DNA of 64,000 nucleotides from Streptomyces rimosus (lineage in GTDB: Bacteria; Actinomycetota; Actinomycetes; Streptomycetales; Streptomycetaceae), in contig NZ_CP023688.1 in assembly GCF_008704655.1 (NCBI RefSeq), positions 4,898,001-4,962,000 on the forward strand, read 5' to 3'. Positions 27,170 through 28,324 of this stretch are shown here, one piece after another. The first letter of the stretch is position 1, and each line of letters opens with the position of its first letter. The translations under genes and the position numbers were made by a program. The notes under the pieces were generated by a model. It saw nothing but the letters and a program-made list of their open reading frames with translations. It searched no databases and had not been told where the DNA came from.

Positions 27170-27242
27170 AGCGGACGACGAGGCTCGAACTCGCGACCTC
27201 AACCTTGGCAAGGTTGCGCTCTACCAACTGAGCTACGTCCGC
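27170..27242 (-). tRNA. tRNA-Gly(GCC), copy 2
   Basis: This 73-nt tRNA is base-for-base identical to the copy at 22797-22869. The D-loop has GG and the T-loop is TTCGAGC, so it looks like a normal elongator glycine tRNA. It serves as the in-window reference for the unusual TCC isoacceptors that lie just upstream on the same strand. Confidence 0.97.
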
Positions 27243-27317
27243 AGGCATCCGACCGGCTTTCACCGGGCGGCGCGACAGCTACTCTACCTGATCCACAAGA
27301 CCGGTAGGTACTGTCAG

Positions 27318-27389
27318 AGCGGGTGACAGGGATTGCACACTGCGCCTCCCCCTTGGAAAGGGGGCGCTCTACTACTGAGCTACACCCGC
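27318..27389 (-). tRNA. tRNA-Gly(TCC), atypical D- and T-loops, copy 1
   Basis: The minus strand gives a 72-nt tRNA: acceptor GCGGGTG/CACCCGC, discriminator T, anticodon stem CCCCC/GGGGG, loop TTTCCAA (anticodon TCC). The D-loop is AGTAGTA and lacks the GG at positions 18-19. The T-arm region reads GCAGTGTGCAATCCCTGT, where the usual TTC is replaced by TGC and the top T-arm pair is broken. Glycine identity elements (C35, C36, T73) remain. It is discussed under findings as a possible cell-wall tRNA. No CCA is encoded. Confidence 0.92.
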
Positions 27390-27434
27390 ATGACCACCAT
27401 CCACCGGGCCCGAAGATCCGGTCGATGCTGTCAG

Positions 27435-27506
27435 AGCGGGTGACAGGGATTGCACACTGCGCCTCCCTCTTGGAAAGAGGGCGCTCTACTACTGAGCTAC
27501 ACCCGC
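27435..27506 (-). tRNA. tRNA-Gly(TCC), atypical D- and T-loops, copy 2
   Basis: This 72-nt tRNA matches copy 1 except for one compensatory pair in the anticodon stem (CCCTC/GAGGG instead of CCCCC/GGGGG). The altered D-loop AGTAGTA and T-arm GTGTGCAATC are the same in both. It lies 45 bp from copy 1, and the sequence just beyond the 3' end (CTGACAG) is also shared, so the pair arose by tandem duplication and kept the unusual loops. Confidence 0.92.
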
Positions 27507-27650
27507 GTGACTCCTTGGGGTTCGGCCTTTCGGCCTCGCCCCTCGGCGTGCTCCAGACTCTAGCTGATCAACAGGGGTGCTGCGCAACTCGGCTGATGGA
27601 CCGTGCGAACCGGCCCGTACGCCGCCGCCCCGCCGCTGTCCGCCCGCCGC

Positions 27651-27703: not shown

Positions 27704-28024
27704 TCAGCTGTTGGCCGCGTCGAAGGCTTCGTAGACCTTCTTCGGGATCCGGCCGCGCGGAGGCACGTCCATGTGGTGGGAGCGGGCCCAGGCGCGCACC
27801 GCCGCGGGATCCGGCGTCACGGAGGTGTGGTGGTACGCCTTGCCGGACTTCGACCGCTTGCGGCCGGCCTCCACGAACGGGGCGAGGGCGCCGCGCAGTT
27901 TCTTCGCATTGGCGGGATTGAGGTCGATCTCGTACCACTTACCGTCCAAACCGAAGGTGACCGTCTCTGCGGCTTCTCCGCCTTCGATGTCATCGGAGAG
28001 CGTGACTACTACGCGCTGCGCCAC
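27704..28024 (-). CDS. lsrL: Lsr2-family nucleoid-associated protein (LsrL-like)
   Basis: Lsr2 proteins are actinobacterial H-NS-like proteins that coat AT-rich DNA and silence it. This 106-aa protein has the N-terminal dimerisation strands (MAQRVVVTLSDDIEGGEAAE, VTFGLDGKWYEIDLNPANAK) and the C-terminal DNA-binding part VRAWARSHHMDVPPRGRIPK with the RGR core that enters the minor groove. The position next to purS matches the second Lsr2 paralogue of Streptomyces (LsrL), not the principal Lsr2; this rests on remembered synteny. The GTG start at 28024 gives the canonical MAQ start. The upstream 300 bp is unusually AT-rich for this genome, which would suit autoregulation. Confidence 0.92.
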   Translation of the reverse strand: MAQRVVVTLSDDIEGGEAAETVTFGLDGKWYEIDLNPANAKKLRGALAPFVEAGRKRSKSGKAYHHTSVTPDPAAVRAWARSHHMDVPPRGRIPKKVYEAFDAANS

Positions 28025-28324
28025 GGATATCGGTCCTTTCGAGCAGCAATCCCGTCCTGACATGGGGGGATGCTGCAGATCCGGCTGATTGGGATCAATG
28101 CATTTTCATTTGTACAGCGACAGGCATTGCAAGGTGAAGCCCAGTTAATTTCCTCAGCGTGTCCTTCCGCAATGCGGACCCTAGGTCTTTTCTGAGATTT
28201 TCCCCACCGCTCACCGAAGCCGATGCCGCAACGTGATCACACCGTCACGATATCTATGCGCGTAGATTTTCGAACACGGTACTGTGAGGGCACCGCCTTA
28301 CGCACCACACCATCGGGAGTGCCA
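28025..28324. promoter_or_regulatory. AT-rich divergent promoter region of lsrL and purS
   Basis: This 300-bp region has AT-rich runs (TTGGGATCAATGCATTTTCA at about 28090-28109 and CAGTTAATTTCCTC at about 28142-28155), rare in this genome and a likely target for Lsr2-type proteins. A 16-bp near-palindrome, ATCTATGCGCGTAGAT (28252-28267), lies 58 bp before the purS start, with a possible -10 TACTGT about 13 bp further. It could be the operator for purine control. I see no gene. Confidence 0.5.

What the first reader, a model, noticed from the sequence alone, without database searches (positions are those of the whole stretch)
27318..27506. Paired tRNA-Gly(TCC) genes with staphylococcal cell-wall-tRNA-like loops
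Both copies lack GG in the D-loop (AGTAGTA) and carry GTGTGCAATC where a normal tRNA has the TTC T-loop, whereas the two tRNA-Gly(GCC) genes 75 bp and 4.5 kb away are normal. In Staphylococcus the non-proteinogenic glycine tRNAs also have anticodon UCC, no G18G19 and a GUGC-type T-loop; they bind EF-Tu poorly and donate glycine to FemXAB for peptidoglycan bridges. Streptomyces peptidoglycan has a single glycine bridge added by Fem-type enzymes. The two copies differ by one compensatory base pair, so selection keeps both fold and unusual loops. Sequence facts are direct; the cell-wall role is inference. If these are the only TCC glycine tRNAs, they must also read GGA codons.
Basis: partly seen in the sequence, partly recalled or inferred. 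Interest (0 to 1): 0.78.

Follow-up and report, generated by a model that had tools for sequence, protein, structure and literature searches.

The report
Streptomyces glycine tRNAs for the cell wall
Two odd glycine transfer RNAs sit beside normal ones in this Streptomyces-type genome; their kind was found in every related genome searched, alongside a normal tRNA of the same anticodon, and they look built to stay off the ribosome, most likely to supply glycine for the cell wall as comparable tRNAs do in Staphylococcus.

Summary
Two tandem tRNA-Gly(UCC) genes have A18 for G18, G55 for pseudouridine 55, and an extra T-stem base; they are the only 2 of 67 tRNAs here without a TTCRA T-loop. They are not the sole UCC tRNA: a canonical one lies at 6.217 Mb. 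Of 61 genus genomes, 61 matched the odd tRNA by blastn and 61 a canonical Gly-UCC pattern, so GGA decoding need not rest on the odd ones. Two patterns for the odd form hit 40 and 39 of 40 same-genus genomes and 0 of 354 others in the class. The tRNA is far better conserved than its flanks. Staphylococcus non-proteinogenic tRNA-Gly and two Propionibacteriaceae genomes also lack G18 and G51-C63 and carry G55. FemAB enzymes occur in 19 of 19 same-genus genomes. Best reading: a dedicated glycine donor for FemX-type peptidoglycan bridges, reached independently of Staphylococcus. Against it: 73 of 177 other genomes have FemAB without a recognised odd tRNA, and no biochemistry was done. None of the papers listed by ten searches reports it.

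The parts
27435..27506 (-). odd tRNA-Gly(UCC), copy 2 (promoter-proximal)
   Evidence: 52.4 bits to RF00005; 103.9 bits to model R1 (this sequence is among those the model was built from)
27318..27389 (-). odd tRNA-Gly(UCC), copy 1
   Evidence: 54.9 bits to RF00005; 105 bits to model R1 (this sequence is among those the model was built from)
27487..27493 (-). D-loop AGTAGTA of copy 2 (A18, G19 kept)
   Evidence: sequence; alignment with canonical Gly tRNAs
27370..27376 (-). D-loop AGTAGTA of copy 1
27443..27460 (-). T-arm of copy 2: GCAG-U-G UGCAAUC C-CUGU (G55; A51-U63; extra stem base)
   Evidence: pair counts
27326..27343 (-). T-arm of copy 1, same features
   Evidence: pair counts
27557..27562 (-). 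-10 promoter element TAGAGT of the odd tRNA transcript
   Evidence: sequence; a TANNNT element in 57 of 57 distinct genus loci examined, TAGAGT itself in 41
27582..27587 (-). -35-like element TTGCGC, 19 bases from the -10
   Evidence: TTGC at this spacing in 57 of 57 distinct genus loci examined
27507..27550 (-). leader hairpin (GGGG..GGCC GAAA GGCC..CCCC) before copy 2, recurring in many genus loci
   Evidence: leader folds listed; sequences
27281..27286 (-). separate TAGAGT -10 element ahead of the neighbouring Gly-GCC
   Evidence: sequence; a GGTANNNT element downstream of the odd tRNA in 55 of 56 distinct loci, TAGAGT itself in 24
27170..27242 (-). canonical tRNA-Gly(GCC) neighbour
   Evidence: 70.2 bits
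22797..22869 (-). second canonical tRNA-Gly(GCC)
   Evidence: 70.2 bits

Best explanation
The two genes encode dedicated non-proteinogenic glycine tRNAs. Shown from sequence: they keep the tRNA fold, anticodon UCC, the G1-C72, C2-G71, G3-C70 pairs and U73, but the G18-pseudouridine55 contact that docks D-loop to T-loop is replaced by A18 and G55, the T-stem carries an extra base, and the G51-C63 pair of the canonical tRNA is A51-U63. Inferred: glycyl-tRNA synthetase still charges them because its recognition sites are intact, EF-Tu binds the charged tRNA poorly because the T-stem and elbow are altered, and the glycine is handed to FemX (and to a VanK-like second Fem protein where present), which adds the single glycine to the peptidoglycan stem peptide. 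Translation of GGA codons is left to the canonical UCC tRNA that accompanies them.
For: Both an odd-tRNA match (blastn, 84-100% identity over the best match; 30 of the 61 read in full) and a canonical UCC tRNA are present in 61 of 61 genus genomes. The odd form matched 40 of 40 (T-arm pattern) and 39 of 40 (D-loop pattern) same-genus genomes and 0 of 354 others in the class; the one D-pattern miss, G179, differs in the D-stem but keeps A18. Conservation: over 52 loci the mean pairwise identity is 0.93 for the tRNA against 0.40 and 0.32 for flanks (ungapped, so flanks are underestimated), with 57 of 72 columns invariant including A18 and G55; stems vary by paired changes; a promoter-like pair of elements is kept in 57 of 57 loci. 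Convergence: Staphylococcus tRNAs and two Propionibacteriaceae genomes share UCC, G55 and loss of G18; the 51-63 pair is A-U in the three Streptomyces and three Staphylococcus rows, a mismatch in the two Propionibacteriaceae rows, and G-C in the two canonical controls. Literature, as passages: pairs 49-65, 50-64 and 51-63 weigh most on EF-Tu binding (PMC8219837); S. aureus non-proteinogenic tRNA-Gly have A51-U63 and altered positions 18-19 (PMC4052509); S. coelicolor FemX and VanK add a single glycine (PMC4790382). Enzyme present: two FemAB proteins in this genome, the core one closest to a lipid II:glycine glycyltransferase among solved sequences (6snr, E 5.2e-32); FemAB in 19 of 19 same-genus genomes and in 7 of 7 genomes queried: three Staphylococcus, one of the two Propionibacteriaceae carriers, Intestinimonas, Agromyces (weak) and Streptomyces sedi (the last two are not established carriers).
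Against: FemAB does not require such a tRNA: 73 of 177 non-genus class genomes carry FemAB at E up to 1e-8 although none scored as an odd tRNA of this form, and only 2 of 147 genomes of the family sample around the Propionibacteriaceae record, that record's own genome included, have the G55 pattern. These searches look for this form; a differently altered tRNA in those genomes would be missed (one search used stricter filters and scored 25 candidates per genome). A single glycine bridge needs far less glycine than pentaglycine. The genes lie far from both Fem genes of the genome. G19 and C56 are kept, so the elbow is not fully dismantled. A37 and U32-A38 (the latter in 9 of 55 distinct tRNAs of this genome, the odd ones included) are ordinary for decoding. 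In S. petrasii and S. coagulans a further cluster Gly-UCC reads GUGUAA, so the Staphylococcus group is itself not uniform. No charging, EF-Tu, ribosome or FemX measurement exists here.
Confidence: 0.7

Rival explanations
1. A dual-use or weak elongator: the odd tRNA is charged, binds EF-Tu less well and still reads GGA as a minor, slow isoacceptor, with no dedicated wall role.
For: Anticodon UCC, U33 and A37 are kept in the genus sequences read, and U32-A38 is ordinary. GGA is a rare codon here, 16 of 289 glycine codons in seven ORFs that I chose, so a slow reader might be tolerated.
Against: A canonical UCC tRNA is present in 61 of 61 genomes, so there is no evident need. The odd loop positions A18 and G55 are invariant rather than drifting. 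Similar loop changes occur in Staphylococcus tRNAs described as non-proteinogenic.
Confidence: 0.15
2. A regulatory pseudo-tRNA or other small RNA that acts as a signal or decoy and is not a glycine donor.
For: The fold departs from canonical; ARAGORN reported no Gly-TCC in 18 of 30 genus loci, though Rfam's tRNA model scored the odd genes above its cut-off in the two such loci tested, L095 and L076. A leader hairpin precedes it in many loci.
Against: The glycine identity positions named here and U73 are invariant, which a decoy would not obviously need. No target is known; Rfam found no T-box in the window, but the rest of the genome was not searched for one.
Confidence: 0.08
3. A glycine donor for another tRNA-dependent reaction, such as natural-product or lipid modification.
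For: Streptomyces uses aminoacyl-tRNAs in several natural-product pathways (PMC4052509, passages).
Against: A match in each of 61 genus genomes points to a core function; that such pathways are strain-specific is recalled knowledge.
Confidence: 0.05
4. Decaying pseudogenes of a duplicated tRNA-Gly.
For: Scores are lower than for the other tRNA-Gly genes, and no CCA is encoded.
Against: Conserved sequence, promoter-like elements and compensatory changes across the genus. Many normal tRNAs of this genome also lack encoded CCA.
Confidence: 0.02

Closest known systems
Staphylococcus non-proteinogenic tRNA-Gly(UCC), donors for FemXAB (PMC4052509; Giannouli et al. 2009 cited there)
   Same: Anticodon UCC, G55 with U54 and C56 around it, G18 lost, A51-U63, tandem copies in several species, FemAB proteins in the three genomes checked.
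   Different: Streptomyces has A18 with G19 kept, G49-U65 instead of A49-U65, an extra T-stem base, A37 instead of C37, no encoded CCA, and (from the literature) a single-glycine rather than pentaglycine product. The lineages are unrelated, so the likeness appears convergent (inference; no tree was built).
Gly-UCC tRNA of two Propionibacteriaceae genomes (L224, L354)
   Same: AGTAGCA D-loop with A18 and G19, G55, UCC; FemAB present in the one of the two genomes tested, that of L224.
   Different: No extra T-stem base, U51-C63 mismatch, U37, encoded CCA; found in only 2 of 147 genomes of that family sample.
Canonical Streptomyces tRNA-Gly(CCC) and tRNA-Gly(UCC)
   Same: Same acceptor stem as Gly-CCC (GCGGGTG/CACCCGC); same glycine identity positions.
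   Different: The canonical ones have G18, a TTCGA T-loop, G51-C63, a five-pair T-stem and encoded CCA.

Membership tests
Staphylococcal non-proteinogenic tRNA-Gly | tRNA-Gly with anticodon UCC | tested here: met
Staphylococcal non-proteinogenic tRNA-Gly | G18 and G19 both replaced (UU or CU) | tested here: not met
   G18 is replaced by A but G19 is kept; so it works like them but is not filed as a member
Staphylococcal non-proteinogenic tRNA-Gly | GUGC-type T-loop (G55) | tested here: met
   Staphylococcus sequences, which were found with a GTGC pattern; two further Staphylococcus tRNAs read GUGU
Staphylococcal non-proteinogenic tRNA-Gly | A51-U63 in place of G51-C63 | tested here: met
   pair in columns 53-66
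Staphylococcal non-proteinogenic tRNA-Gly | A49-U65 in place of G49-U65 | tested here: not met
   pair in columns 51-68: G-U in the Streptomyces rows
Staphylococcal non-proteinogenic tRNA-Gly | a separate proteinogenic glycine tRNA remains for translation | tested here: met
   61 of 61 genus genomes have a canonical Gly-UCC
Staphylococcal non-proteinogenic tRNA-Gly | weak EF-Tu binding | not testable with these tools
   inferred from T-stem pairs only
Staphylococcal non-proteinogenic tRNA-Gly | donates glycine to Fem enzymes | not testable with these tools
   FemAB proteins present, use not shown
Elongator tRNA | G18-pseudouridine55 elbow contact, TTCRA T-loop and five-pair T-stem | tested here: not met

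The most novel reading that the evidence does not exclude
Streptomyces evolved, independently of Staphylococcus, a genus-wide glycine tRNA withdrawn from translation to feed peptidoglycan synthesis. Loss of G18 with G55 and a weakened 51-63 pair is then a recurrent sequence signature of tRNAs diverted from the ribosome, seen in at least three lineages and usable to find more such tRNAs, which some tRNA finders miss.
Probability: 0.6. Interest if true: 0.8.

Novelty: new variant of a known kind. Interest (0 to 1): 0.68.

Why it matters
S. coelicolor adds one glycine to each peptidoglycan precursor through FemX, and precursors without the side chain could not be cross-linked (PMC4790382, passage). 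Where that glycyl-tRNA comes from, and how it escapes EF-Tu, was not addressed for this genus in the papers my searches listed. A dedicated donor tRNA in a well-known, genetically tractable genus makes the question directly testable by deletion and by in vitro FemX assays, gives a second solution to compare with Staphylococcus, and suggests that other diverted tRNAs are hidden where annotation scores them poorly or misses them.

Tried and rejected
Rejected: that the odd genes are the only UCC tRNA; that they are the normal actinobacterial form; that they are decaying; that they are phage- or plasmid-borne (no match in the phage or plasmid collections; those notes warn that records very near this genome may be left out). 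A simple rule 'Fem present means odd tRNA present' fails.

Led nowhere or of limited use: a first pattern over 41 related genomes, found the odd tRNA in only four of them because the pattern was too narrow (it demanded TTCCAA); its other three matching genomes (G014, G023, G032) hit chance sequences. Paper searches: one search found nothing; none of the papers listed was, by its title, start of abstract or the passages I read, about such a tRNA in Streptomyces (one search listed 20 of 9,759). The library holds only openly licensed papers; an older S. lividans tRNA-gene paper that I recall (Sedlmeier et al. 1994) was not seen, so prior notice there is possible. The Agromyces hit L254 lies in a contig with 13 tRNA genes in 8 kb and may be from a mobile array; I do not count it as a wall tRNA. 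L224 did not reach the Rfam gathering score although L354 did and ARAGORN calls both. Plasmid searches meant to name the genus were weak: the best Lsr2 matches were from Kocuria, the best DNA match of a 7 kb window stretch was Nonomuraea at 76.6% over 36%, the eight listed FemX matches were Streptomyces clavuligerus at about 68%, and four named Streptomyces contigs shared no DNA with my loci. Single-sequence folding did not give the cloverleaf as the lowest-energy fold for either odd copy, nor for the normal GCC control.

Rows dropped: one search was given 12 of the 15 same-order genomes; searches used a fixed text pattern and dropped L114 and L138 (both G179, whose D-stem differs) and collapsed duplicates (56 distinct of 69 loci for, 57 of 89).

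Slips: one search mapped minus-strand loci wrongly and listed duplicates, corrected; one search ended with an error after printing its rows; one search used a wrong pattern and gave nothing, redone; one search failed and was redone; one search asked for an accession that is not held.

Full report
What is there. Two tRNA-Gly(UCC) genes lie in tandem on the minus strand at window 27435-27506 and 27318-27389, followed by a normal tRNA-Gly(GCC). Read against canonical glycine tRNAs, the odd genes have A14 G15 U16 A18 G19 U20 A21 in the D-loop and U54 G55 C56 A57 A58 U59 C60 in the T-loop. So the two partners of the usual G18-pseudouridine55 contact are both replaced, while G19 and C56 are kept. 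The T-stem reads GCAG-U-G on one side and C-CUGU on the other: four pairs, an unpaired U, then a G-C pair. The unpaired base is U in 51 of 52 loci and C in one. An alternative reading is a four-pair stem with a ten-base loop; the pairs concerned never vary within the genus, so the data do not separate the two. The acceptor stem, U73 and the anticodon are intact, and no CCA is encoded. The two copies differ by one compensatory pair.

Whole genome. The genome is one 9.36 Mb contig with 67 tRNA matches. Of these 67, only the two odd genes lack a TTCRA T-loop, and only they and one tRNA-Leu lack GG in the D-arm stretch I examined. There is a third Gly-UCC, canonical and with encoded CCA, at 6217284-6217357. 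In seven ORFs that I chose, six in the window and the core Fem gene, GGA makes up 16 of 289 glycine codons.

Distribution. A blastn search of the odd tRNA found a match in 61 of 61 genomes of the genus, best match 84-100% identical; 30 of these loci were read. Among 56 distinct loci had one copy, five had two and five had three: 71 copies in 23 distinct sequences (two loci of one genome, G179, were dropped by the text pattern). A Gly-GCC gene lies near the odd tRNA in 29 of the 30 loci; the exception, L078, is cut by its contig end. ARAGORN reported no Gly-TCC in 18 of those 30 loci (my count of its rows), so that program often misses these genes, although Rfam's tRNA model scored the odd genes of L095 and L076 above its cut-off. 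A canonical Gly-UCC pattern was found in the same 61 of 61 genomes. A covariance model built from 16 odd sequences scored 94.9-105.3 bits in 19 of 19 same-genus genomes and at most 74.3 bits in the other 177 genomes of the class, in a list sorted by E-value and cut at its end. Of 35 non-genus top loci that I looked at, 27 could be printed and were ordinary glycine tRNAs. In 12 genomes of sister families of the order the best score was 73.6 bits. Two patterns, one for the T-arm and one for the D-loop, hit 40 and 39 of 40 same-genus genomes and 0 of 354 others; the one D-pattern miss, G179, has a different D-stem but the same AGTAGTA loop.

Selection. Over 52 loci the tRNA has mean pairwise identity 0.93, against 0.40 just downstream and 0.32 further upstream (ungapped comparison, so flanks are underestimated), with 57 of 72 positions invariant, among them A18 and G55. 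The varying positions include paired ones that change together (11-23, 26-42, 29-39 and 31-37 of the alignment), and positions 57 and 60, which vary in normal tRNAs too (recalled). Related sequences exceed shuffles without structure more often than chance, as the counting tool warns, so I lean on the paired changes themselves. Upstream, a TTGC element 19 bases from a TANNNT element, TAGAGT in 41, is present in 57 of 57 distinct loci, and by eye a leader hairpin with a four-base, often GAAA, loop recurs in many of the folded leaders.

Convergence. A search of that genome's family found one further genome with the same kind of tRNA, 2 of 147 in all. In a ten-sequence alignment the pair equivalent to 51-63 is G-C in the two canonical controls of this genome, A-U in the three Streptomyces odd rows and the three Staphylococcus rows, and a mismatch in both Propionibacteriaceae rows, while pair 53-61 is G-C in all ten. 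Position 37 is A in the Streptomyces rows, C in the Staphylococcus rows and U in the Propionibacteriaceae rows. In Staphylococcus petrasii and S. coagulans a further Gly-UCC in the cluster carries GUGUAA, also not canonical. That the likeness is convergent is inference from the distance between the lineages; no tree was built.

Enzymes. The genome has two FemAB proteins: one in the core (C1:4600608-4601684) beside an alanine-racemase-like gene, and one near a chromosome end beside MurF-like and sensor-kinase-like genes; these neighbour names are my reading of the translations, not a search. The core protein's best solved relative is a lipid II:glycine glycyltransferase. FemAB occurs in 19 of 19 same-genus genomes but also in 73 of 177 others, and in 7 of 7 genomes holding loci from the named scan that I checked (the Agromyces match is weak and the Streptomyces sedi locus is not an odd tRNA).

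Literature. Seen as passages only: PMC4052509 on the three non-proteinogenic S. aureus tRNA-Gly; PMC8219837 on pairs 49-65, 50-64 and 51-63 in EF-Tu binding; PMC4790382 and PMC9739842 on FemX and VanK adding glycine in S. coelicolor. The ten searches listed no paper that I recognised as describing such a tRNA in Streptomyces; the lists were read as titles and starts of abstracts.

Mechanism. Shown: fold, identity positions, altered elbow, altered T-stem, conservation beside a canonical isoacceptor, and likeness to Staphylococcus. Inferred: charging by GlyRS, poor EF-Tu binding, delivery to FemX. That glycine identity lies in the first three acceptor pairs, U73 and C35-C36, and that G18 contacts pseudouridine 55, is recalled, not from a call. 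The acceptor stem equals that of tRNA-Gly(CCC), which suggests origin by duplication of a glycine tRNA. The main weakness is that Fem enzymes elsewhere occur without a recognised tRNA of this form, so it would be a refinement rather than a requirement of Fem chemistry.

Verdict. It is a new variant of a known kind: it works like the Staphylococcus tRNAs but fails two of their sequence features (G19 kept, G49-U65 kept), so I do not file it as one of them.

Noticed in passing
window 27507-27550 and upstream leaders of the related loci: The odd tRNA transcript begins with a hairpin leader (GGGG..GGCC GAAA GGCC..CCCC) between promoter and tRNA that recurs in many genus loci; its role is unknown.
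   Followed up: partly
G000:C1:9138032-9139105: A second FemAB protein near the chromosome end lies beside MurF-like and sensor-kinase-like genes (my reading of the translations), resembling a VanK-type arrangement.
   Followed up: no
L204 4427-4827: An Intestinimonas contig has a GTGC-type Gly-UCC tRNA next to a T-box leader, in a genome with a FemAB protein.
   Followed up: partly
L254: An Agromyces contig has 13 tRNA genes in 8 kb by ARAGORN, including an odd Gly-UCC with a GTGC T-loop; possibly a mobile tRNA array.
   Followed up: no
L206 and L227: Two Verrucomicrobiota contigs hold closely alike tRNA-like sequences with GGTGC T-loops and an encoded 3' CCA; their anticodon was not worked out.
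   Followed up: no
window 27704-28063: An Lsr2-type gene directly upstream of the odd tRNA operon.
   Followed up: partly
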